Shown here one piece after another: positions 1,730 to 52,489 of a stretch of DNA of 64,000 nucleotides. The stretch lies in assembly GCF_016862635.1 (NCBI RefSeq), contig NZ_BONI01000029.1, positions 1-64,000 on the forward strand, read 5' to 3'. Position 1 is the first letter of the stretch; each line of letters starts with the position of its first letter. The translations under genes were made by a program, and so were the position numbers. This DNA comes from Catellatospora coxensis (GTDB taxonomy: Bacteria; Actinomycetota; Actinomycetes; Mycobacteriales; Micromonosporaceae). The notes under the pieces were generated by a model. The model was not told the DNA's origin. It worked only from the letters and a program-made list of their open reading frames with translations, and made no database searches.

Positions 1730-2326
1730 TCAGCCCTGCGGCTCACGCCACATCGGGTACAGCGCCGGGCCGCCGCCGGGCAGGTGGTAGGCCTCGCCCA
1801 GCAACGCGAACCCGTGCCGCAGGTACAGATCCCGCGAACCCGTGCTCGACGCCTCCAGGTAGGCCGGCACACCCTCGGCGTCCAGCTGCGCCAGCCGCCG
1901 CCCGAGCAGCTCGCTGCCCAGCCCGGTGCCGCGCAGCCCCGGGCGCACGGCCAGCAGCGCCAGGTGCCAGTGCGGACGGCCGTGCGGGTGGTGCTCGGCG
2001 AACACCTCGTCCAGCAGCGCGAACCGGGCCGCGTGCGGCCCCGCCAGCTCGACCAGCCGCTCGTCGTACCCGTCGATCCACGGCGCGTCCACGGTGTTGT
2101 CGAACCACACCGCAACCGCGTCGTCGCCGGCCACGTCCACGGCCCCGTACGCCAGGGCGTGCTCGGCGAACCAGCCGAACTGCCCGGCCATGATGCGCTC
2201 GCGCTCGACCGGATCGTCGAGCAGCCAGTGCGCCACGGCCAGCTCCTGGAACGACGCCGAGATCAGCCTTCCCGCGGCCGCGGTGTCCACGGCCGGAGCC
2301 GTCGACACCGCGTCCGAGCCGGTCAT
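1730..2326 (-). CDS. GNAT-family N-acetyltransferase
   Basis: 198 aa. The acetyl-CoA-binding motif A is clear: LLAVRPGLRGTGLGSELLGR, followed by the motif B region LYLRHGFALLGEAY. The N-terminal third carries the variable acceptor-binding half, so the substrate is unknown. Its start overlaps the end of the upstream APC permease by 4 bp, so the permease gene is first and this is second in an operon. That suggests, but does not prove, that the acetyltransferase acts on an amine or amino acid brought in by the permease. Confidence 0.85.
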   Translation of the reverse strand: MTGSDAVSTAPAVDTAAAGRLISASFQELAVAHWLLDDPVERERIMAGQFGWFAEHALAYGAVDVAGDDAVAVWFDNTVDAPWIDGYDERLVELAGPHAARFALLDEVFAEHHPHGRPHWHLALLAVRPGLRGTGLGSELLGRRLAQLDAEGVPAYLEASSTGSRDLYLRHGFALLGEAYHLPGGGPALYPMWREPQG

Positions 2327-3822
2327 ACGCCGACCTTAGGGGCCTCCGCCGACGAGACCTCGGTCTTGCCGCCCTCGACGCCCTTGCCGATCGCCTCGTA
2401 CAGCGCCGGCTTGGTGGCGCGCAGCACCAGCGCCCAGATCACGCCGACGACCGCGACCAGCAGGTACAGCCCTGGCAGGATCCAGCGGGCCGCGTGCTCG
2501 TCACCGGTGCCGAGCATGGTGCCGTAGTCACGGACGGTCTGCTGCACCGCCCAGATCAGGAACAGCGCCGACAGCACCGGCGCGATGACCCGGGTCCACA
2601 GGCTCTCGCCGCGCTTGTCCTTGGCGAAGTACAGCACCACGGCGACGCTGGTGCCCGCGAGCAGCAGCAGCACGCCGAAGCCGCCGGTCATGCCCAGCCA
2701 GAAGAACAGGTGGGTGAACGGGTCCAGCTGCGCGATCGCGTACACCAGGATGACGGCCAGGCCGATGACGCTCTGCAGGACCGAGGCGCCGACCGGGGCG
2801 CCCGAACGCGCGCCGGTGCGGGCCAGCGAACGCGGCAGCACGCCCTCGCGGGCCAGCGAGAACGTGTAGCGGGCCACGGTGTTGTGGTAGGACAGCATCG
2901 CCGCGAAGGCGCTGGTCACCAGCAGCACGTTGCCGGCGTCGGCGAAGAACGCGCCCAGGTGCTCGCCGGCCAGCACGAACATGAGGTCGGCCTGGGCGGC
3001 GTGCTCCTGGCTCTGGACGACGATGTTGTCCGGGCCGGTGGCCACGGTCAGCGCCCACGCGGTCAGCGCGTACACGAACACCATGACGCCCAGGCCGCCG
3101 AACGAGGCCAGGGCGATCGTCTTGCGGGAGTCGCGCGACTCCTCGGCGAACACCGGCGGGGCCTCGAACCCGACGAACGCGGTCACGGTCACGGTGAGCA
3201 CCGCGCCGAGCGCGCCGCCGATGAACAGGTTGTCCGGCGAGAACGCGGCGAAGCTGACGCCGTCGGCCGGGTTGGCGATGAACACGATGTCGTACAGCAG
3301 CACGATGGCGAGCTCGGCGACGAGCACGACCAGCAGCAGCTTGCTGTTGATCTCGACGCGGGACAGGCCGAGCACCGTGACGAACAGCCACGCGACCAGG
3401 GCCAGCACCCACCACTGCACGTTGATGTCGAACATCGCGCCGAGCAGGCCGGAGCCGGCCGCGCCGAAGATGCCGTACAGGCCGACCTGCAGCAGGTTGT
3501 AGCCGAGCACCGCCGACAGCGCGGCGGCGACGCCGGCGGGGCGGCCCAGGCCCTGGGAGATGTAGGAGTAGAACGCGCCGGCGTTGCGGATGTGGCGCGA
3601 CATGGCGACGTAGCCGAACGTGAACAGCGCCAGCGCGGCGCCGATCAGCAGGATGCCCAGCGGGAAGCCGATGACCTGGACGTTGGCCCAGCCGGCGACG
3701 ATGACGCCGCCGATGACCATGAGCGGCGCCGCGGCGGTCAGCGCGAACGACGCCACGGACGCCGAGCCGAGCCGGTCGGCGGCCAGGGCCGACGACAGCG
3801 CGGAGCTAGGGGGTGCGGACAC
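2323..3822 (-). CDS. APC-family amino acid/polyamine permease
   Basis: 499 aa with about 12-14 hydrophobic spans. The first helix region (SVASFALTAAAPLMVIGGVI) and the helix 6 region (TVTAFVGFEAPPVFAEESRD) match the amino acid-polyamine-organocation pattern, in which an unwound helix binds substrate and a conserved acidic pair follows GFE. The GTG start is supported by AAGGAG nine bases upstream. It overlaps the GNAT gene downstream. Substrate is not predictable from sequence alone. Confidence 0.88.
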   Translation of the reverse strand: MSAPPSSALSSALAADRLGSASVASFALTAAAPLMVIGGVIVAGWANVQVIGFPLGILLIGAALALFTFGYVAMSRHIRNAGAFYSYISQGLGRPAGVAAALSAVLGYNLLQVGLYGIFGAAGSGLLGAMFDINVQWWVLALVAWLFVTVLGLSRVEINSKLLLVVLVAELAIVLLYDIVFIANPADGVSFAAFSPDNLFIGGALGAVLTVTVTAFVGFEAPPVFAEESRDSRKTIALASFGGLGVMVFVYALTAWALTVATGPDNIVVQSQEHAAQADLMFVLAGEHLGAFFADAGNVLLVTSAFAAMLSYHNTVARYTFSLAREGVLPRSLARTGARSGAPVGASVLQSVIGLAVILVYAIAQLDPFTHLFFWLGMTGGFGVLLLLAGTSVAVVLYFAKDKRGESLWTRVIAPVLSALFLIWAVQQTVRDYGTMLGTGDEHAARWILPGLYLLVAVVGVIWALVLRATKPALYEAIGKGVEGGKTEVSSAEAPKVGV

Positions 3823-4740: not shown

Positions 4741-6585
4741 TCACGACTGCGTCACCGTGATGTTGTCCAGGCCCGCCTCGACCAGGCTGGCCGTGCTCGC
4801 GTCCGCCGCCTCGACCAGGAAGCGCACGCTCTGGCCCGCGTACGCGGTCAGGTTCGCCGAACCGCTGCCCCAGGCGCCGTTGCGGTTGGTCGCCGCGCCG
4901 GCGATGGTGGCCAGCACCGTCGTGCCGCCGCTGTGCACGACCGAGATCCGCAGGTAGTCGGCGCTGGAGGAGTTCGAGCCGTGCGCCAGGTACCACTGCC
5001 AGCTCGCGTTCAGCGTGCCGGTGGCCGGCAGCGTGATCGCCGGCGACTGGATCGAGCTGGTGCCGCCGTCGAGGTCGAAGTCGCCCGCCGCGGTGCCCGC
5101 CGACAGGCCGGTGGCCAGGTCGTTGCTGCCCGCGAACGGGGTCAGCTGCTTGGCTCCGCTGGAGTTGGTCGCCTGCGCCGCGCCGCGCGCCCACTGGCCG
5201 GTGGTGGCCGTGTCGGTGCCGCCCGGGTTGACGGTCCAGCCGGTCGCGGTCTCGAACGTGTCGGACCAGACCGTGGTGCCGCCACCGCCGGTGCCGCAGT
5301 ACGTGGCCTCCTTGCCGATCACCCGGTACGGGCAGTCGGCCTGCTGCAGCAGCATCAGCACCGCGGCCCGGTTACGAGTGGTCTGCGCGGTGATGACCTC
5401 GTCCGGCGGGTAGAAGCCGCCGCCGCTGCCGGAGCTGCCCGGGTACATCTCGAAGGTGTACGCCCAGATCCTGTGCGTGCCCCACATCCAGTCGATGGAC
5501 GTGCCGTCGGCGACGTAGAGGTCGCTGGACTGCTCCGGGGTGTAGCTGTTGGTCGCGGCCATCTGCTGGCCCAGCGTGGCGAACGTGTTGTACTCGTCCG
5601 CGCTCATGCCCGACGGGTTGTTGGCCGTCGTGTAGCCGAACGGCCACAGGATGAGCTGCGAGTACGTGTGGAAGTCGATGTTGGCCTTGATCTGCTGGAC
5701 GCCGCCGACGACCCGGCTGTTGACGAAGTTGCGCAGGTTCGTCGACTCCGGCGCGGAGAACGCCGACGGGCCGCGGTAGGTCTCACTGCTGGTCGTGCCG
5801 CTGGAACCGCCGCAGCAGCCCCACTGGTAGGACCAGTTGCGGTTGAGGTCGGTGCCGACGTTGCTCGAACCGCTGTTGGGCTGGCGGTTCTTGCGCCACG
5901 AGCGGTAGCTGCCGGTGGCGATGTCGTACTCGCCGCCGTCGGGGTTCATGTCCGGCACGATCCAGATCTCGCGGCTGTTCACGATGTTCGTGATCGCCGA
6001 GTCGGAGCCGTAGCCGCTGGTGAACAGGTTCATCAGGTAGATGGCCATCTCGACCGTGAGGTGCTCACGGGCGTGCTGGTGGTGGTTGAACAGGACCTCG
6101 ACCTCGTTCTCGTCGGTGGCGACGTTGTCCGAGATCTTGATCAGGGGCATGTTGCGGCCCTCGTAGGAGTTGCCGATCGTCGTCACCCGGAAGATCGACG
6201 GGTACGACGAGGCCAGCGAGTTGATGACGGCCATCATCTCGCTGTAGTCGTGGTAGTTGGAGTCGGCCGGCGGGAACGCCAGCGGCTGCGCGTGGTCGTC
6301 CTGGGTCGGGGCGAGCACCCGGGTGACCGTGAAACCGAGAGCCTTGATCTTGGCAGCCTCACCCGGGGTGGCGGTGATGTCGAGGATGCCGTGGTCGAAG
6401 CCGTCGATGGCCGCGCCCGTGGCGGCGATCGCGTTGCGCTGGGCGAGGGTCTTGATGCCCTGGACGGTGTAGTGGCCCGAGGTGCTGACCTCGGGTCCGA
6501 CCGGTGCGCCGTCGGCCGGTCCGGTCAGGACCATGGTGCCGGCCAGCGCCAAGGTGGATACGAAGACGGTTAACCGTCGCCGCAT
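4741..6585 (-). CDS. Secreted M14 zinc carboxypeptidase with C-terminal jelly-roll domain
   Basis: 614 aa. I chose the ATG at 6585, 11 codons inside the longest frame, because GGAGG sits 6 bp upstream and the protein then begins [16 protein letters not shown], a signal peptide cleaved near ADGA. The catalytic M14 domain runs from about residue 110 to 430: the zinc ligands lie in HHQHAREH (HxxE) and in NIDFHTYSQ, with a late Glu in YTFEMYPGS as candidate catalytic base. The C-terminal ~170 residues form a Thr/Ser/Gly-rich beta domain beginning [13 protein letters not shown], probably a substrate-binding jelly roll. It should digest peptides outside the cell. Divergent from the IMPase-like gene. 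Confidence 0.9.
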
Positions 6586-46548: not shown

Positions 46549-47187
46549 CTACAGGCTGCGTTTGAGCATCGCGTCGGCGAGCGCGTCGGCGCACTCGGCC
46601 AGGCGCAGCCCGACCACGTCGAGGCGGCGCAGCAGCTCGCGCTGCTTGAGCACGGGACCGGTGACCTCGCCGCTGAGCAGCTCGGCCAGACCCTGGGCGT
46701 ATAGGTGGCGCACCCGGCCGGAGCGTTTGTGCGCGGCCAGCGCCGCCTCCGCCGCCTCGACCGGGCGGTCGACCAGCCGGTCCAGCGCCCGGCGCAGGTC
46801 GCGCAGGCCGATGGCGACCTGCTCCAGGATCGCCACCGCGTGGTGGTCCAGGCGTACGCCGTAGAGGTCCGTCTCGCGCACGTAGTCGCGCAGGTGGTCG
46901 AGCACGTCGTCGACGGAGCGGGACAGCCGGAACAGGTCCTCGCGGTCGATCGGGGTGGCCAGCGTCGCGGCCAGCTCGGCGACCAGCCGGCCGCGGTGGG
47001 CGTCGCCGTCGTGCTCGATCTCGGCGATGCGCAGCCGGGCCAGCGGCGGCTCGATCTCGCCGATGGTCACCATCACGGCCAGCGCCACCCCTTCCAGGGC
47101 GGCGTCGATCTGCGCGAGCACGATCGCCAGCACCCGTTTCGGGGCGCGCCCCGCGAGGTCGTCGAGCACCCGCCGCAGCCTGATCAC
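46549..47187 (-). CDS. DUF47 (PhoU-like) accessory protein of the phosphate transporter
   Basis: 212 aa from the GTG at 47187, which overlaps the PiT stop (GTGA). All helical. The pattern IEHDGDAHRGRLVAELAATLATPIDREDLFRLSRSVDDVLDHLRD matches DUF47/PhoU-like proteins, in which Asp/Glu-rich helices bind metal and regulate PiT transport. The N-terminus is MIRLRRVLDDLAGRAPKRVL. Coupled translation with the transporter supports a complex at the membrane. Confidence 0.88.
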   Translation of the reverse strand: MIRLRRVLDDLAGRAPKRVLAIVLAQIDAALEGVALAVMVTIGEIEPPLARLRIAEIEHDGDAHRGRLVAELAATLATPIDREDLFRLSRSVDDVLDHLRDYVRETDLYGVRLDHHAVAILEQVAIGLRDLRRALDRLVDRPVEAAEAALAAHKRSGRVRHLYAQGLAELLSGEVTGPVLKQRELLRRLDVVGLRLAECADALADAMLKRSL

Positions 47188-48185
47188 AGCGTGCTCCGCA
47201 AAGCCAGGCCCGCGGCGTAGCCGAGGGTGAGGCTGGCGGGGACGGTGACCAGCCAGGCGGTCAGCACGGGGGTGGCGAACTGCCAGCGGATGCGGCGTAC
47301 GCCGGTGCTGGCTCCCGCGCCGACCAGCCCCGCCGTGGCGGACTGGGTCATGCTGACGGGCACGCCCATGCCCGCGCTGCCGAACACCGCGGTGGCCGAC
47401 GCGACCCCGGCCGTGACCAGGGTCCACGGGCGCTGCGGGGTGAGCCCGCCGGCCGCGCCCCGGGCCATGCGCCGCAGGCTCAGCACCGCCCCGGCCGCGA
47501 ACACCAGCGCCGTCGCGCACAGCAGCAGCAGCGGCGGGGCCTGCATGCCGGGGGCCCGGTGGGCGACCCCGAGCGCGACGCCGACGACGGCGAACATCTT
47601 CTGCCCGTCGTTGGCGGCGTAGGCGAGGCTCTGCCCGGCGAACGCGGTGACGTGCGCGTACCGCATCGCGCGGGGCAGCCGGGACGTGGTGGGCAGGCGA
47701 CGGGCGGCCAGGCCGAGCAGGTAGCCGAGGCCGCCGCCGAGCAGCGGGGCGAGCGCGGCGACCGCGAGCACGACGGCCAGGGTGGACCAGGCGGGCGGCA
47801 CGCCCAGCCCGGCGCCGACCCCGGCCAGGCCGCCGAGCACGGCCAGGGTCACGCTGGTCGGCACCCCGCGCCAGGCCAGGGTCAGGACGAGGGCCAGCGC
47901 GACGCCGACCCCGGCGAGCACGACCAGGGGTCCCCGGACGCCGCCGGCGTCGACGAGGCGGTCGGTGAAGGTGTGCGCGACCGCGAGTCCGAACAGGGCC
48001 GGTCCGGCGATGATCGCGGCGAGCAGCACGGCGAGCACGCCGTAGAGGGGCAGTTCGCGCTGGCGCAGGGCGAGGGCGAGCAGGGCCGCGCCGTCGTTGG
48101 CGCCGCAGACGAAGACGAATCCGGTGGCCAGCATCGCAAAGCCGATCACCACGGCCGACCACCCCCGACTCCACCAGGAGTTCAC
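47184..48185 (-). CDS. Inorganic phosphate transporter, PiT family
   Basis: 333 aa with about ten TM helices. Both PiT signature repeats are present: FVFVCGANDGAALLALAL near the N-terminus and YAANDGQKMFAVVGVALG in the middle, each carrying the GANDxxxx/AANDGxK phosphate-site motif. The intracellular loop between the halves is short. It takes up phosphate, usually as a metal complex, with protons. It is followed by the overlapping DUF47 gene. Divergent from the 243-aa gene at 48276, with a 90-bp shared promoter region. Confidence 0.92.
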   Translation of the reverse strand: MNSWWSRGWSAVVIGFAMLATGFVFVCGANDGAALLALALRQRELPLYGVLAVLLAAIIAGPALFGLAVAHTFTDRLVDAGGVRGPLVVLAGVGVALALVLTLAWRGVPTSVTLAVLGGLAGVGAGLGVPPAWSTLAVVLAVAALAPLLGGGLGYLLGLAARRLPTTSRLPRAMRYAHVTAFAGQSLAYAANDGQKMFAVVGVALGVAHRAPGMQAPPLLLLCATALVFAAGAVLSLRRMARGAAGGLTPQRPWTLVTAGVASATAVFGSAGMGVPVSMTQSATAGLVGAGASTGVRRIRWQFATPVLTAWLVTVPASLTLGYAAGLALRSTL

Positions 48186-48275
48186 CGTACTTGATCAACT
48201 GAGTTCGCACGGTCGGAATCCCGATTGCCGCCCGACCGGGTGATCGTCTAGCGTCACTCGCCGGGAGGAACACTG

Positions 48276-49007
48276 ATGGCGAAGCTGAACCAGATCATCG
48301 CGGTCGAGAAGGGCATCAAGAGCCGCTCGTTCCAGGACCTGACCGAGGCCCACCACGCCGTGCAGAAGCCGGCGCTGCTGTCGGGCATCTCGAGGACATA
48401 CCAGGCCAAGGACGAGGAGGGCGAGCAGCTGCCGCCGGAGTCCACGAAGGTGCAGACCCGCGCCGAGGACGTGCTGCGCCAGATCGGCGTCACCCTGTCG
48501 CGGCTGTTCGACGTGACCGCGACCAAGGACGCGACCAACTGCACGGCCCGCGCCGACGTGGTCGTCGACGACCGGGTGCTGCTGTCCGACGTGCCGGTGA
48601 CGTACCTGCTGTTCCTGGAGAAGCAGCTCACCGACCTGCACACCTTCGTCAAGAAGCTGCCGGTGCTGGACGCCGCCGAGTCGTGGGTGTTCAGTGACTC
48701 CGCCGACTGCTGGTCCACCGAGCCGGTGCGCACCATCCGCACCAAGAAGGTGCCCCGCAACCACGTCAAGGCCGAGGCGACCGAGAAGCACCCGGCGCAG
48801 GTCGAGGTGTACTACGAGGACATCGCGGTGGGTTACTGGACCACGGTGAAGTTCTCCGGCGCGCTGCCGGCCAAGCGGGTGTCGACGCTGCTGGAGCGGG
48901 TGGAGAAGCTGCAGCAGGCGGTCAAGTTCGCCCGCGAGGAGGCCAACAACGCCGAGGCGGTCGACAAGCACGTCGGCGACCGCGTCTTCGGTTACCTGTT
49001 CGCCTGA
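48276..49007 (+). CDS. Conserved-looking 243-aa protein directly upstream of two tRNA-like RNAs
   Basis: 243 aa; GGGAGGA lies seven bases before the ATG, and TTGCCG (48225-48230)/TAGCGT (48249-48254) is a candidate promoter. I do not recognise the family with certainty. The protein is soluble and mixed alpha/beta, with a basic helix at the start (MAKLNQIIAVEKGIKSRSFQ), a middle part with VPVTYLLFLEKQLTDLHTFVKKLPVLDAAESW, a basic strand (VRTIRTKKVPRNHVKA) and a C-terminal coiled-coil-like helix (RVSTLLERVEKLQQAVKFAREEANNAE). The basic patches would suit RNA binding. The gene is followed within 35 bp by the two RNAs on the same strand, so it may bind or process them. Confidence 0.65.
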   Translation: MAKLNQIIAVEKGIKSRSFQDLTEAHHAVQKPALLSGISRTYQAKDEEGEQLPPESTKVQTRAEDVLRQIGVTLSRLFDVTATKDATNCTARADVVVDDRVLLSDVPVTYLLFLEKQLTDLHTFVKKLPVLDAAESWVFSDSADCWSTEPVRTIRTKKVPRNHVKAEATEKHPAQVEVYYEDIAVGYWTTVKFSGALPAKRVSTLLERVEKLQQAVKFAREEANNAEAVDKHVGDRVFGYLFA

Positions 49008-49014
49008 CGAGACT

Positions 49015-49034
49015 CCCCCGCCGGAGGGCGGGGG
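49015..49034 (+). terminator. GC hairpin between the 243-aa gene and the first RNA
   Basis: CCCCCGCC (49015-49022) pairs with GGCGGGGG (49027-49034) around a GGAG loop, 7 bp after the stop codon. No T tract follows, so it may be a processing or attenuating hairpin rather than a full terminator. Confidence 0.5.
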
Positions 49035-49041
49035 TGCGCGA

Positions 49042-49175
49042 GGAGCGCAAGCTGAAGCTGAAGCCGAAGCTGAACAACGCGGTGACAGTGTGGGTTCGAG
49101 TCCCACCCCCTGCACCACCTGCGGGGGTAGCCCAACTGGCAGAGGCAGCCGCGATCAAACTCAGATTCTCGCTCC
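49042..49175 (+). ncRNA. Y-RNA-like RNA A with permuted tRNA-like domain
   Basis: Read 5' to 3': basal stem 49042-49047 with 49170-49175 (6 bp); 49066-49073 with 49161-49168 (7 bp, one A-G mismatch); anticodon-stem-like 49078-49083 with 49148-49153 (6 bp, one G-U); T-arm GTGGG-TTCGAGT-CCCAC at 49090-49106; acceptor strand CCCCTGC (49107-49113) with GCGGGGG (49121-49127), 7 bp with one G-U; 7-nt cap ACCACCT; then TA, a 3-bp D-stem (49130-49132/49144-49146) and a D-loop with GG at 49138-49139. T-arm, D-arm and acceptor are therefore all tRNA-like but in permuted order, closed where a tRNA has free ends. The encoded ACCA in the cap may be chance. A GAAGCTGA repeat on the 5' side allows a second pairing register. 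This matches the layout of YrlA-type bacterial Y RNAs. Confidence 0.75.
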
Positions 49176-49188
49176 AGACTCAGCATTC

Positions 49189-49349
49189 GCCGCCGAACAC
49201 CAGGTCGACCGCGTACGGGCGAAATCCCCGGGGTGCCGGTTCGAGCCCGGCCCGCTCCTCTTCCTGGGGCGGTAGTCCAAACGGTAGAGACACGGGGTCT
49301 TGATACTGACCCGTTCGCTTAAACGTACTGGTGTGTGCAATTCGGTGGC
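49189..49349 (+). ncRNA. Y-RNA-like RNA B with permuted tRNA-like domain and long stem
   Basis: Stem segments: 49189-49197 with 49341-49349 (9 bp, one G-U); 49198-49203 with 49328-49333 (6 bp); 49211-49219 with 49310-49318 (8 bp, one T-T mismatch); anticodon-stem-like 49226-49230 with 49293-49297 (CCCCG/CGGGG). The module inside has a 4-nt variable region, T-arm GCCGG-TTCGAGC-CCGGC (49235-49251), acceptor strand CCGCTCC (49252-49258) with GGGGCGG (49266-49272), 7-nt cap TCTTCCT, TA, D-stem GTC/GAC (49275-49277/49289-49291) and D-loop with GG at 49283-49284. Every helix of a class I tRNA body is kept, joined in permuted order. It starts 14 nt after RNA A and is followed by a terminator at 49358, so both may come from one transcript. 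Confidence 0.8.
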
Positions 49350-49357
49350 ACCCCGAG

Positions 49358-49384
49358 GCCCGGGAGAAGGACAGTCTCCCGGGC
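49358..49384. terminator. Terminator after RNA B
   Basis: GCCCGGGAGA (49358-49367) pairs with TCTCCCGGGC (49375-49384): perfect 10-bp stem with a 7-nt loop, then TTC. It also lies just past the stop of the convergent beta-helix lipoprotein. Confidence 0.8.
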
Positions 49385-49385
49385 T

Positions 49386-50576
49386 TCACCATGTCCGGCG
49401 GCAGTCCGTGTCGGCAAAGCCCTTGGCGGCGCCGGAGACGGTGTTGTCGCAGGCGACGACGTTGCCGGCGACGGGCGTCAGGTGGAATCCCCAGCCCGGG
49501 CCGTCGACGGCGGCGGTGTTGGCGGTGAACACGTTGCGGTCGCCCCACCCGTCGGCGACACGGTGGGTCTGGAAGCCGTCGCCGCGCGAGTGCCGGCCCG
49601 TGTTGGCTTTGATCAGCCAGCCGTTGCCCTTCACGTCGACCCACGAGTCGGCGTACGAGCCGGTCATGGCCGCGCCGTCGAACGTGTTGGCCTCGATGGT
49701 CCCGCCGGTGGTGCCCTCCTTGACGTCGACGGGTTCGGCCGTGGTGGCGCTGATCCGGTTGCCGCGGATCACGTTGCGGTCGCTGCGGTCGGGCTCGCAG
49801 GCGGTGACGTCGCACCAGTTGCTCTGCGCGGTGCCGACGTACACGCCCTCGCCGAACTTCGCCCGGCGCAGGCCGGTGTCGCGTACGACGCTGTCGCGCA
49901 CCAGGTTGTCGGAGCTGAAGGCGCGCAGGTGGACCGCCTCGTCGCCGACGTGCTCCACGGTCAGGCCGGTGAGCACGGCGTGGCTGGTGCGGTCGAGCAT
50001 GACGCCCTTCTGCGCGTTGCGGACCGTGAACCCGGTCAGCCGCCAGTGGTCCGCGCCGTCGAGGTGCAGGGCGTACCCGTGGCCGGTGCCCCCGCCGTCG
50101 AGCACCGCGCCGCGTCCGCCGCACAGGTGCACGGGTTTTCCAGCGGTGCCGGCGACGGTGGCGGCGAAGCGGCCCGCGTACACCCCGTCCGCGAGCCTGA
50201 TACTGTCCCCCGGCCGGGCCCGCGCCAGCGCGCCGGCCAGCGCCGACCCGTCTGCCACGGTCACCGTCGCGGGCGGGCAGGCCGCCGTGGCCCGGCTCGG
50301 CGTCGAGCCCGCGGCGGACCCGGCTCGGCCGGCGTCGGGTGCCGGGGTGGCTCCGGACGCCGCACCGGGATGCGGTCCCAGGCATCCGCCCAGCGCCATG
50401 AGCAGCAGCACGACCATCCCCGCCAGCAGGGACGTCGCCACGAACGGCAGCATTGGACCCCGGCCGCGCCGACGTGACCCGAGGCGGACTCCGTCGGCCG
50501 CCGCGACGCGCGCCGGCGAGGCCGGGCGGGGCGAGGCGTGCCGAGGGCTCGGCCGGCGCGGGGACGGTGCGGTCAT
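49386..50576 (-). CDS. Right-handed beta-helix lipoprotein
   Basis: 396 aa from the ATG at 50576, which overlaps the upstream gene's stop (ATGA). A basic Pro/Arg-rich N-terminus precedes a hydrophobic segment ending LLLMALGGCLG, a possible lipobox. The body (about residues 130-396) is a parallel beta-helix with PbH1-type repeats: LTGFTVRNAQKGVMLDRTSHAVLTGL, NLVRDSVVRDTGLRRAKFGEGVYVG, RNVIRGNRISATTAEPVDVKEG. Such folds bind or cleave/epimerise polysaccharides. It is the last gene of the GT2 operon, so it may act on the exported polymer. Confidence 0.8.
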   Translation of the reverse strand: MTAPSPRRPSPRHASPRPASPARVAAADGVRLGSRRRGRGPMLPFVATSLLAGMVVLLLMALGGCLGPHPGAASGATPAPDAGRAGSAAGSTPSRATAACPPATVTVADGSALAGALARARPGDSIRLADGVYAGRFAATVAGTAGKPVHLCGGRGAVLDGGGTGHGYALHLDGADHWRLTGFTVRNAQKGVMLDRTSHAVLTGLTVEHVGDEAVHLRAFSSDNLVRDSVVRDTGLRRAKFGEGVYVGTAQSNWCDVTACEPDRSDRNVIRGNRISATTAEPVDVKEGTTGGTIEANTFDGAAMTGSYADSWVDVKGNGWLIKANTGRHSRGDGFQTHRVADGWGDRNVFTANTAAVDGPGWGFHLTPVAGNVVACDNTVSGAAKGFADTDCRRTW

Positions 50577-52489
50577 TCGGCCATCACCACCCGGGCCCGG
50601 CCACGGGCCGTCTCGCGCGGGCTGGGCCGGCCGGGCTCGGACCGCCCCGGCGACGGCCCACCGGGGAACAGCGGTTTGGTCGCCGCGTACGGGTGGCCGT
50701 GGTCGTCGGGGCGGCGGCGGAACGCCAGCACGACGATGAGCAGCAGGATCGCGGTCCACAGCAGCGTCATCGGGCTGGCGTAGTGGCGCACCCGGGCCCA
50801 CAGCGTGCTGGTGTCCAGCCACGCGTCGGTCTGGTTGTCGCGCACCGTGAGCCTGCCCTCGGCGCGGCCGGTGTCCACCGCGCTGGGGCCGATGCCGGTG
50901 ATCGCGTTGCCGGCGGCGACCGAGCCGCCGACCGCGCCGACGAAGGTGACGCCGTGGCTGTTCGCGTCGTGGATGGTGTTGCCGCGCACCTCGGCGACGG
51001 AGTCGCGCACGTACACCCCGGTCCGGGTGCTCTCGATGAGGTTGCCGGTGATGCGGGCCCCGGCGACGCCGTCGCGGATCGCGATCGCCTGGCGGCGCTG
51101 GTCGGAGAGCCGGTTGGCGGTGAGGGTCAGGTCGCGCGTGCCGAGCCGGGCCACGATGCCCATGTCGCCGCCCTCGATCTGGTTCTCCTGGATGCTGACG
51201 TTCAGCCCGCCCAGGATCTCGAAGCCGTAGTGGCCGTTGCCGCGGGCGGTGCTGTGCGAGACCGTGTTCGCGCCGTAGCTGGCGGTGGACTGGCCGGACG
51301 CCGAGGGCCCGTCGGCCAGCGGCCGCCCGCTGAGGGTGAACCCGTTGCCGCCGTTGCGTTCGGCGGTCGTGTTGGTGATGCGGACCTGCTGGGTGGCCCG
51401 GGACAGCAGGAAGCCGTCGCCGCCGTTGTGCTGGGACACGGTGCGTTCGATGACCGCGTTGGTGGCGAAGCGGTGCAGCACCAGGCCGTGCTGCAGGCTG
51501 TCGCGCACCTTCGTGTCGGTGATCTTGATACCGTCGGCGCTGGACACGAACAGCCCGTACGCGTTGCCGACGAACTCGCTGTTGCCGATGGTCCCGGACA
51601 CGTAGGACAGGCTCGGCACGGTGAACCGGCTGTCCGGGCTGGCCACCCGGCCCCCGGACGAGATGCGCACCTCGCCGGGCAGGATCCGGCCGGGCGTCGC
51701 GGCGCTCGGCCCCTCGACCGCGCCGGTGTCGGGCCGGTCGGTGCCGGTCAGGCTGACCCCGCCGGTGCGGCCACTCCAGAACCCGAGATGCGACGCGCGG
51801 GCATGGCTCATGGCGAAGTTGCCGCCGATCGCCCGCAGGTAGGCCCGTCCGTCACGGACGTCGGTGTCGGGTTTGCCGGTACGCGGATCCCAGCTGGTCA
51901 CGCGCACCGGGGCCTGCTTGGTGCCCGCCAGGGTCAGGCCGCCGCCGAACGACACGATCGCCACGAAGCCGCTGCTGCGGCTGGCCAGGCGCAGTTCCAG
52001 GCCGCCGGGGTGGGCCAGCTTCAGCCGCGCCCCGGAGTTGAGGTAGATGTTCTCGGTCAGCAGGTACGCGCCCTGCTGCTGGCGGACGAACGTCTGCGGG
52101 GCGAGCCGCAGCAGGTCGTCGACCGTGTACGCGGCGGTGCGCGCGGTCAGCACCAGCGTGTAGCCGCCGGCGGTGTCGAGCCGGTAGGGCCGGTCCCACT
52201 TCTGCGTGGTGCTGCCCGGGGCCCGGCTGAGCAGATCACGCAGCGGGGCGACCGCGGTGACCGCCCTGACCTGGTTGAGCCACCGGTCCTCGGCCGCCAC
52301 CAGCGCGGCCTGCCGCTCGGCATCGGCCGGCGCGGCTTCGGCGGCGGCGGCGCGATGGGCCGCGGGTCGGGCCGCGGACGAGGGCGCGGCGGATGCGCCG
52401 AACGCGGCGAGCAGCACGGCGGCCGTGGCGGCACCGGCGAGCGCGGACGCGACCCGCCGAAAGGGCGCGGCTGCCCGGGGCCGGTTCAT
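50573..52489 (-). CDS. Membrane-anchored right-handed beta-helix protein (NosD/AlgG-like)
   Basis: 638 aa; the ATG at 52489 overlaps the GT2 stop. A signal peptide (VASALAGAATAAVLLAAFGASAA) is followed by a helical region to about residue 130. A long parallel beta-helix then fills about 130-580, with repeats such as VSYVSGTIGNSEFVGNAYGLFVS-like units, NAVIERTVSQHNGGDGFLLS and ARITGNLIESTRTGVYVRDS. A TM helix near the end (MTLLWTAILLLIVVLAFRRR) anchors it, with a cytoplasmic tail. The position between a synthase and a second beta-helix protein recalls AlgG-type epimerases of alginate systems; the actual chemistry is unknown. Confidence 0.8.
   Translation of the reverse strand: MNRPRAAAPFRRVASALAGAATAAVLLAAFGASAAPSSAARPAAHRAAAAEAAPADAERQAALVAAEDRWLNQVRAVTAVAPLRDLLSRAPGSTTQKWDRPYRLDTAGGYTLVLTARTAAYTVDDLLRLAPQTFVRQQQGAYLLTENIYLNSGARLKLAHPGGLELRLASRSSGFVAIVSFGGGLTLAGTKQAPVRVTSWDPRTGKPDTDVRDGRAYLRAIGGNFAMSHARASHLGFWSGRTGGVSLTGTDRPDTGAVEGPSAATPGRILPGEVRISSGGRVASPDSRFTVPSLSYVSGTIGNSEFVGNAYGLFVSSADGIKITDTKVRDSLQHGLVLHRFATNAVIERTVSQHNGGDGFLLSRATQQVRITNTTAERNGGNGFTLSGRPLADGPSASGQSTASYGANTVSHSTARGNGHYGFEILGGLNVSIQENQIEGGDMGIVARLGTRDLTLTANRLSDQRRQAIAIRDGVAGARITGNLIESTRTGVYVRDSVAEVRGNTIHDANSHGVTFVGAVGGSVAAGNAITGIGPSAVDTGRAEGRLTVRDNQTDAWLDTSTLWARVRHYASPMTLLWTAILLLIVVLAFRRRPDDHGHPYAATKPLFPGGPSPGRSEPGRPSPRETARGRARVVMAE

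What the first reader, a model, noticed from the sequence alone, without database searches (positions are those of the whole stretch)
49042..49349. Tandem permuted tRNA-like (Y-RNA-like) ncRNAs beside an unassigned protein, with no Ro60
Two consecutive RNAs each contain a T-arm, a 7-bp acceptor-like stem capped by a 7-nt loop and a D-arm, in the order 3' half then 5' half. Distal pairing replaces the anticodon loop with a long stem. Both keep 7/7 acceptor pairs (one G-U), 5/5 T-stem pairs, a 3-bp D-stem and the GG of the D-loop, which is hard to get by chance twice. Known bacterial Y RNAs have this build but are reported next to Ro60/TROVE genes. Here the only plausible partner is the 243-aa protein at 48276. 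It may be a new RNA-binding partner, or these are orphan Y RNAs for a distant Ro60.
Basis: partly seen in the sequence, partly recalled or inferred. Interest (0 to 1): 0.88.

Follow-up and report, generated by a model that had tools for sequence, protein, structure and literature searches.

The report
tRNA-mimic RNA paired with DUF7873
A bacterial and phage RNA built around two inside-out tRNA shapes is almost always encoded next to one protein of unknown function, which points to an undescribed RNA-protein machine.

Summary
Window 49051-49387 encodes a structured RNA with two circularly permuted tRNA bodies (T-arms at 49090 and 49235). The 64-kb window holds exactly these two; 100 dinucleotide shuffles hold none. 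Each module also keeps an anticodon-stem-like helix, so only the anticodon loop is replaced by the rest of the RNA. The 48276 protein is DUF7873 (PF25283) and is the constant partner: within 900 nt, permuted modules lie 3' of DUF7873 in 9 of 10 phage, 62 of 77 IMG/VR and 78 of 79 genome loci, against 1 of 166 upstream and 0 of 166 antisense. A covariance model finds the body beside DUF7873 in 24 of 24 DUF7873-bearing relatives (11 had helped build it), and no comparable match in 37 others. A terminal hairpin with loop NGGNYAN is a further signature. The genome does carry Ro60/TROVE on another contig, with its own tandem Y RNAs. So these are most likely not orphan Ro60 Y RNAs but a separate tRNA-mimic RNA with an unrelated protein. 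Binding, processing and function are untested. Most likely DUF7873 holds the RNA body and the modules recruit a tRNA-recognising enzyme.

The parts
48276..49007 (+). DUF7873 protein gene, 243 aa (stop included): proposed protein partner
   Evidence: Pfam PF25283, E 3e-119; AF2 model mean pLDDT 93.3, pTM 0.68; orthologues in 24 of 61 relatives (own genome included), 73 phage records
49015..49034 (+). P1 hairpin, 8 bp, just after the stop codon
   Evidence: sequence; one of its pairs (alignment columns 11:38) is among the stronger covarying pairs
49036..49048 (+). P2 short GCGC hairpin
   Evidence: sequence; support from relatives not counted separately
49051..49184 (+). Module 1 unit: P3a (49051-49055 with 49180-49184), AC-like stem, permuted tRNA module, conserved UCAGAYUCUCGCUCCAG stretch
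   Evidence: pair counts on A5: score 0.283 vs 0.094 shuffled and at most 0.079 slid; P3a itself hardly varies
49078..49153 (+). Permuted tRNA body 1: AC-like stem 49078-49082/49149-49153; T-arm 49090-49106; acceptor 3' 49107-49113; linker ACCACCU 49114-49120; acceptor 5' 49121-49127; U8 49128; D-stem 49130-49132/49144-49146
   Evidence: YrlA 27.9 bits
49186..49348 (+). Module 2 unit (R1 model segment): P4 49190-49194/49344-49348; P5a 49198-49203/49328-49333; P5b 49211-49219/49310-49318
   Evidence: pair counts on A4: score 0.399 vs 0.171 shuffled and at most 0.114 slid; P5b 8 of 8 pairs with double-sided changes; R1 157 bits (this sequence is in the model)
49226..49297 (+). Permuted tRNA body 2: AC-like stem 49226-49230/49293-49297; T-arm 49235-49251; acceptor 3' 49252-49258; linker UCUUCCU 49259-49265; acceptor 5' 49266-49272; U8 49273; D-stem 49275-49277/49289-49291
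   Evidence: YrlA 19.3 bits
49355..49387 (+). P6 terminal hairpin: 13-bp stem, 7-nt loop AGGACAG (49368-49374), consensus NGGNYAN; no U-run follows
   Evidence: GGNYA in the loop of 83 of 108 distinct hairpins vs 4.1% for shuffled loops; no terminator-like site by scan

Best explanation
The locus encodes a two-part system: the DUF7873 protein and a structured RNA of about 340-370 nt that most likely works in trans as a ribonucleoprotein. SHOWN: the RNA carries one or two whole tRNA bodies in permuted order. The acceptor ends are joined by a linker, and the anticodon loop is replaced by the body of the RNA. The body covaries, and in the genome samples every strong match to it lies beside DUF7873. 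INFERRED: DUF7873 binds the conserved body and/or the P6 loop. The tRNA-like modules then dock a factor that reads the tRNA elbow and acceptor (PNPase, as in Ro60-YrlA; or RNase P, tRNase Z, TruB, or a tRNA-attacking toxin), so that the particle tethers, guides or titrates that factor. In phages it often lies in or beside tRNA arrays, which would fit protection or management of the tRNA pool; on chromosomes it is a stand-alone locus.
For: Linkage: 149 of 166 loci with at least 450 nt of downstream sequence have a module 3' of DUF7873 (9/10 phage, 62/77 IMG/VR, 78/79 genome), against 1 upstream and 0 antisense. R1 recovers 12 of the 15 IMG/VR misses and the 1 genome miss. Relatives: 24 of 24 with DUF7873 have an R1 match beside it (23 at 57 bits or more, G017 at 38.6; 11 of the 24 contributed a sequence to R1, 13 did not); 37 without have none over 50 bits. 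Class sample: 24 of 25 vs 0 of 271 at 65 bits or more. Trans gene: the RNA is upstream of DUF7873 in L089 and on the opposite strand in L090. Covariation; acceptor positions have 5 or 6 standard pair types each in 196 distinct modules. AC-like stem, not required by the scan: 5/5 pairs in 189 of 239 modules vs 18.8% with swapped partners. P6 loop. None of the 14 largest clusters of neighbouring ORFs spans chromosomal and viral loci. By analogy, YrlA's basal stem tethers the protein and its tRNA-like domain binds PNPase (PMC8394870, passages).
Against: No binding or expression data. DUF7873 is not basic overall (pI 6.3) and has no convincing fold match, so RNA binding is unproven. In the distant phages looked at (two Rhizobium, one each of Vibrio, Klebsiella, Pseudanabaena) R1 gives no match or a module-only match, and only one of the five shows the P6 loop. 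L052, L053 (identical) and L076 have DUF7873 without a recognisable RNA; the Microcoleus phage (L031) shows only a weak 24-bit hit about 2 kb away. Module 1 is often missing or imperfect, so two modules are not essential. TROVE is commoner in relatives with DUF7873 than without (15/24 vs 4/37), so a link to Ro60 is not excluded. The genome searches scored only 47 and 9 first-look candidates per genome, with strict filters, so weak copies without DUF7873 could be missed. Nothing shown says which factor the modules recruit.
Confidence: 0.58

Rival explanations
1. Ordinary bacterial Y RNAs whose partner is the Ro60/TROVE protein encoded elsewhere in the genome; DUF7873 is a neighbour.
For: Sub-threshold YrlA hits; the genome has TROVE; TROVE-linked Y RNAs in this group also come in tandem permuted pairs (L224, L228); TROVE is commoner in relatives with DUF7873 (15 of 24) than without (4 of 37).
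Against: 9 of 24 DUF7873 genomes have no TROVE match, nor do 31 of 35 DUF7873-bearing virus records (fragments possible). TROVE loci have their own Y RNAs with a different basal sequence (read). In the genome samples matches of 57 bits or more to R1 occur only beside DUF7873; in six TROVE loci matched by coordinate only the module part scores.
Confidence: 0.12
2. A cis-acting 3' UTR element that regulates or processes DUF7873 mRNA through tRNA mimicry (autoregulation).
For: Usually just 3' of the gene on the same strand; no promoter-like or terminator-like site by simple scan in 48100-49450, so no sign of a separate transcript.
Against: L089 has the RNA upstream of the gene and L090 on the opposite strand 1.2 kb away. 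The conserved body is far larger than a processing signal needs (inference).
Confidence: 0.12
3. Processing signals or permuted tRNA genes: RNase P and tRNase Z cut the linkers, giving a multi-piece RNA or mature tRNA-like species with CCA ends.
For: CCA follows the first linker base in 67 of 196 distinct modules; phage copies often sit in or beside tRNA arrays; linkers of permuted tRNAs are thought to be removed this way (PMC3978253, passages).
Against: No anticodon loop, so not decoding tRNAs.
Confidence: 0.15
4. Chance pairing or remains of dead tRNA genes.
For: Tandem identical tRNAs can imitate a permuted module (L220-L222).
Against: No tRNA is called in the window; none in 100 shuffles; strong covariation; permuted modules at the same place in phages of other phyla.
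Confidence: 0.01

Closest known systems
Bacterial Y RNA YrlA (RF02553) with Ro60/Rsr (TROVE)
   Same: Permuted tRNA-like domain with T-arm, acceptor stem, linker and D-arm in that order; protein gene next to the RNA gene; tandem copies in the actinobacterial TROVE loci L224 and L228
   Different: Protein is DUF7873, not TROVE; basal sequence differs; a 5-bp AC-like stem is kept in most modules (189 of 239; not counted for YrlA); P4/P5 body and P6 NGGNYAN hairpin; YrlA score 27.9/19.3 vs gathering 69
Circularly permuted tRNA genes (algae, Thermofilum)
   Same: 3' half precedes 5' half, joined by a linker at the acceptor end
   Different: No anticodon loop; one end of each module opens into a structured RNA; paired with a dedicated protein gene
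tmRNA with SmpB
   Same: tRNA-like RNA with a dedicated protein (PMC8394870 passage)
   Different: Permuted modules, usually two; no tmRNA call; a tag reading frame was not looked for
GOLLD and ROOL RNAs
   Same: Large structured RNAs of phages, often near tRNA islands, function unknown (PMC12286853, passages)
   Different: No Rfam hit in the window; here a protein gene is the constant neighbour and permuted tRNA modules are present

Membership tests
Bacterial Y RNA (YrlA type) | Permuted T-arm/acceptor/D-arm domain | tested here: met
Bacterial Y RNA (YrlA type) | Scores over Rfam YrlA gathering threshold (69 bits) | tested here: not met
   27.9 and 19.3 bits; but the window genome's TROVE-linked copies also miss it (43.4 and 27.5), so this test alone is weak
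Bacterial Y RNA (YrlA type) | Encoded beside a Ro60/TROVE gene | tested here: not met
   TROVE lies on contig C7, this RNA on C29; DUF7873 is the neighbour
Bacterial Y RNA (YrlA type) | Basal sequence of the TROVE-linked type (GGTGCGCAGG...GATCTCGGG or similar in this group) | tested here: not met
   by eye only: seen in L224, L227 and L228 sequences printed, not in 49010-49390
Bacterial Y RNA (YrlA type) | Binds Ro60/Rsr | not testable with these tools
   needs pull-down
Circularly permuted tRNA gene | Halves in reverse order around an acceptor linker | tested here: met
Circularly permuted tRNA gene | Encodes an anticodon loop and yields a functional tRNA | tested here: not met
   the AC-like stem opens into the RNA body, no anticodon loop; ARAGORN 0
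DUF7873 (PF25283) | Over the Pfam gathering score (27 bits) | tested here: met
   397.5 bits over residues 1-242
TROVE/Ro60 protein | Pfam TROVE match in the 48276 protein | tested here: not met
   only DUF7873 matches; no convincing PDB sequence or fold relative

The most novel reading that the evidence does not exclude
DUF7873 and its RNA are a separate class of tRNA-mimic ribonucleoprotein, independent of Ro60, shared by actinobacterial chromosomes, actinophages and large phages of at least four other host groups (Vibrio, Klebsiella, Rhizobium, cyanobacteria). Its RNA displays two tRNA elbows whose anticodon ends are fused to a protein-bound core, to capture or decoy tRNA-handling enzymes.
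Probability: 0.58. Interest if true: 0.92.

Novelty: new variant of a known kind. Interest (0 to 1): 0.85.

Why it matters
Bacterial Y RNAs are known as partners of Ro60. Here the same permuted tRNA trick belongs to an unrelated protein family of unknown function, found at 466 or more places in GTDB genomes (79 of the 80 kept are actinobacterial) and in phages of several phyla. That gives DUF7873 a first functional lead, adds a conserved RNA that no Rfam 15 family matches at threshold, and makes it directly testable why an RNA should imitate a tRNA body without its anticodon loop. In phages, its frequent place in tRNA arrays bears on how phages manage or protect tRNAs.

Tried and rejected
Free-energy folding alone: of limited use. 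Promoter and terminator scan of 48100-49450: nothing. Family libraries: PHROGs with 5 proteins, PADLOC with 3, NCBIfam with 3: no hit. PDB by sequence: two ribosomal-protein matches at E about 0.7. Foldseek: no match with E <= 0.001 in PDB or BFVD; among the listed rows the better fold-level ones are 3kdq_C (TMq 0.35) and Vibrio phage Vp_R1 A0A2H5BQ40 (TMq 0.43), not taken as homologues. Alanine identity (G3:U70): present in module 1 of the window but in 1 of 196 distinct modules of the set, so dropped. Conserved third gene: none of the 14 largest neighbour clusters printed spans chromosomal and viral loci; the largest joins 48 genome loci.

Partial R1 hits away from DUF7873: 12 regions fetched. 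L220-L222 are tandem duplicated real tRNA-Asn genes, an artefact class; L229-L231 lie in tRNA arrays; L224, L227 and L228 carry TROVE. L225 and L226 have the same two-module layout (L225 also PhoX, as in L224), but TROVE was not tested there. L223 is one module without an explanation. The other partial hits were not fetched; five of them, and the fetched G030 one, lie within about 2 kb of a TROVE match by coordinates.

Weaknesses of my own tests: the module scan requires T-stem, acceptor and D-loop features, so only pair variety and the AC-like stem are independent of it. MAFFT alignment A4 appears to mis-register the AC-like stem of module 2 (25.7% of cells paired) and the D-stem (46.4%); R1 was built with that fault. 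A4 holds 37 and A5 31 of 47 non-redundant loci chosen because both modules were found (71 of 99). Eleven of the 24 relatives had a sequence in R1. The genome searches scored 47 and 9 candidates per genome. One search covered the window and 36 loci, not all. The IMG/VR and genome sets are the best 80 of 149 and of at least 466 relatives, so distant forms are under-sampled. 19 of 232 modules overlap an ARAGORN call, judged weak canonical-order calls upstream of the T-arm; not resolved further.

Full report
WHAT IS THERE. Downstream of the gene at 48276-49007, on the + strand, the sequence holds two permuted tRNA-like modules. Module 1 has its T-arm at 49090-49106, acceptor halves at 49107-49113 and 49121-49127 (7 of 7 pairs, one G-U) and a 3-bp D-stem; module 2 has its T-arm at 49235-49251 and acceptor halves at 49252-49258 and 49266-49272 (7 of 7, one G-U). 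A scan of the 64-kb window on both strands with these rules found exactly these two; 100 dinucleotide shuffles found none. ARAGORN finds no tRNA in the window. Rfam has nothing at gathering score; below it YrlA matches both modules, at 27.9 and 19.3 bits against a threshold of 69.

THE MODULES ARE WHOLE tRNA BODIES. In 240 distinct modules from the loci described below, 239 have the 3-bp D-stem. Of these, 189 also have a perfect 5-bp helix at the place of the anticodon stem, 160 of them with one base in place of position 26 and a variable region of 3 to 6 bases; 40 have 4 of 5, 9 have 3 and 1 has 2. With partners swapped between modules, 5 of 5 occurs in 18.8%. This helix was not required by the scan. 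So each module is a tRNA body whose anticodon loop is replaced by the rest of the RNA and whose acceptor ends are joined by a linker. Every acceptor position shows 5 or 6 standard pair types in those 196; pairing itself was a scan criterion, the variety was not.

THE REST OF THE RNA. Covariation on 47 non-redundant actinobacterial loci shows a long helix (P5) that encloses module 2. Pair counts on A4 (module 2 with P4 and P5; 37 sequences) give a covariation score of 0.399 against 0.171 in shuffles and at most 0.114 in slid controls; in P5b 8 of 8 pairs change on both sides. Two of its seven helices fared badly (25.7% and 46.4% of cells paired), which I attribute to mis-registration by MAFFT. 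On A5 (module 1 with P3; 31 sequences) the score is 0.283 against 0.094 and at most 0.079, with 99.1% of cells paired. After the last module comes a terminal hairpin, median stem 12 bp, whose loop contains GGNYA in 83 of 108 distinct hairpins (9 further loci gave none), against 4.1% for shuffled loops. Here it is AGGACAG at 49368-49374. Module 1 is the less constant part: of 99 loci examined 71 have two modules by the relaxed scan, 26 one and 2 none; in 25 of the 26 the one found lies at +178 to +242, the place of module 2. Some of these have an imperfect module 1 rather than none; in L016 a short hairpin stands in its place (read).

THE PARTNER. The 243-aa protein is DUF7873 (PF25283; 397.5 bits). 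No paper in the library holds that name. It is found in 24 of 61 relatives, own genome included, 25 of 296 genomes of the class sample, at least 466 places in the GTDB contigs (of the 80 kept, most Streptomyces), 149 IMG/VR places, 73 phage records and 4 PLSDB records. Among loci with at least 450 nt downstream, a permuted module lies within 900 nt 3' of the stop on the same strand in 9 of 10 phage, 62 of 77 IMG/VR and 78 of 79 genome loci. The controls are 1 of 166 upstream and 0 of 166 antisense. Of the 16 IMG/VR and genome misses the covariance model R1 recovers 13: 11 downstream (L100 only in part), L089 upstream of the gene and L090 on the other strand. L052, L053 (identical) and L076 remain without. 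The phage miss L031 has only a weak 24-bit hit about 2 kb away.

CO-OCCURRENCE. With R1, 24 of 24 DUF7873-bearing relatives have a full or nearly full-length match beside the gene (23 at 57 bits or more, G017 at 38.6). Eleven of the 24 had contributed a sequence to R1; 13 had not. Of the 37 others two have weaker matches: G030, 49.5 bits, partial, near TROVE; and G020, 36.5 bits, in a tRNA array. In the class sample 24 full-length matches of 65 bits or more all fall beside DUF7873 in the 25 DUF7873 genomes (the exception, G254, has a split match); the 271 others have none, only partial ones of 33 to 46 bits in 14. These searches score a limited number of candidates per genome (47 and 9) with strict filters, so weak copies can be missed. 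Two conserved 15-16-base motifs were searched in IMG/VR: 9 of 88 stretches have a module near the motif. Seven of the nine have DUF7873; in the other two the stored stretch begins 349 and 395 nt before the motif, too short to hold it. Six of the nine contigs had already been fetched through DUF7873, so only three are new: two with DUF7873 (L313, L315) and one that cannot be tested (L292).

Ro60. 'No Ro60' holds for the window only. The genome has a TROVE gene on contig C7 (confirmed in L228) with two YrlA-like RNAs (43.4 and 27.5 bits). Among relatives 19 of 61 have TROVE; of 24 with DUF7873, 15 have TROVE and 9 do not; of 37 without DUF7873, 4 have it. This positive association counts against full independence, although 11 of the 24 are one genus. 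Of 35 DUF7873-bearing virus records 4 have TROVE (records can be fragments). The TROVE-linked RNAs printed share a basal sequence (GGTGCGCAGG...GATCTCGGG or similar) that I do not see in 49010-49390. So the tRNA-like module is shared with Y RNAs, but the body and the neighbouring protein differ.

PROTEIN. AlphaFold2 from 77 sequences gives pLDDT 93.3 and pTM 0.68: long helices 4-30, 63-90, 108-126 and 199-224 and a long beta hairpin 151-166/175-190 with invariant residues at its tip (T169, H172-V176). No fold match reaches E 0.001. Overall charge is near neutral, pI 6.3, which neither supports nor excludes RNA binding.

HOW IT MOST LIKELY WORKS. Shown: structure and covariation, linkage and co-occurrence. 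Suggested by L089 and L090: the RNA is a gene of its own. Inferred: DUF7873 binds the conserved body or P6; the modules present tRNA elbows and acceptor stems to a tRNA-handling factor. The model is Ro60-YrlA, where the basal stem holds Rsr and the tRNA-like domain binds PNPase and is modified by TruB and DusA (PMC8394870, passages). Which factor is recruited is not known. In phages the pair often lies in or beside tRNA genes (23 of 80 IMG/VR stretches have three or more tRNAs), but 105 of 170 loci have no ARAGORN call within 1.5 kb, so a role confined to tRNA arrays is unlikely.

COMPARISON AND NOVELTY. By 2014, 34 permuted tRNA genes were listed, in algae and one archaeon (PMC3978253, passages). 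GOLLD and ROOL are phage RNAs near tRNA islands, without an identified protein partner for ROOL (PMC12286853, passages). A Listeria phage paper proposes Y RNAs near an Rsr-like gene (PMC12282133, passages), and a Vibrio jumbo-phage paper mentions a Ro60-related protein (PMC7765460, passages). PMC9569102 (passages) reports yrlA predictions in some mycobacteria; PMC7790460 (passages) and PMC7824862 (passages) treat Ro60 systems. I did not find this RNA or DUF7873 in print in searches, which cover open PMC papers only; of these only search 17 asked for the protein's name. Chen 2014 and a Wolin review were not held and could mention some of these loci. I file it as a new variant of a known kind: a tRNA-mimic RNA of the Y-RNA sort with a different protein and a different body. 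It is not filed as a member of the Ro60/Y RNA family, because tested features of that family were not met.

Noticed in passing
L228 (G000:C7:91500-97000), modules at 4863 and 4718 minus, TROVE 2245-3813 minus: The window's own genome has a TROVE gene with two tandem YrlA-like RNAs on its upstream side; a distinct Ro60/Y RNA locus.
   Followed up: partly
L224 modules 2352 and 2144 minus; L225 2093 and 2326 plus; L226 2637 and 2398 minus: Loci of the class sample with two permuted modules about 210-240 nt apart; TROVE confirmed in L224 only, PhoX neighbour in L224 and L225.
   Followed up: partly
L223, 2326 minus (G136:C2): A single permuted module (6 of 7 acceptor pairs) with neither TROVE nor DUF7873 in the two ORFs tested; partner unknown.
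   Followed up: no
L024 2570-2642 plus; L025 1151-1223 minus: A canonical-order tRNA-like element (ARAGORN: Leu TAG; unassigned) lies between module 2 and the terminal hairpin of the DUF7873 RNA.
   Followed up: no
L089 2668-2935 plus; L090 4932-5095 minus: Rearranged loci: RNA upstream of DUF7873, and RNA on the opposite strand.
   Followed up: partly
L220-L222: Tandem identical tRNA-Asn genes imitate a permuted module in scans and in the R1 model; a trap for any genome-wide search.
   Followed up: yes
L172 4356-4519 plus: A Ktedonobacterales MAG carries DUF7873 at 78% identity with the RNA (115.7 bits); transfer or mis-binning not settled. The control genome Deinobacterium chartae also has DUF7873.
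   Followed up: no
L073 3001-3726: A viral DUF7873 copy with an internal stop codon.
   Followed up: no
window 49386-50822 minus and 47187-48185 minus: Neighbours are a beta-helix/NosD-like protein and a PHO4-type phosphate transporter; no sign of a link to the RNA.
   Followed up: partly
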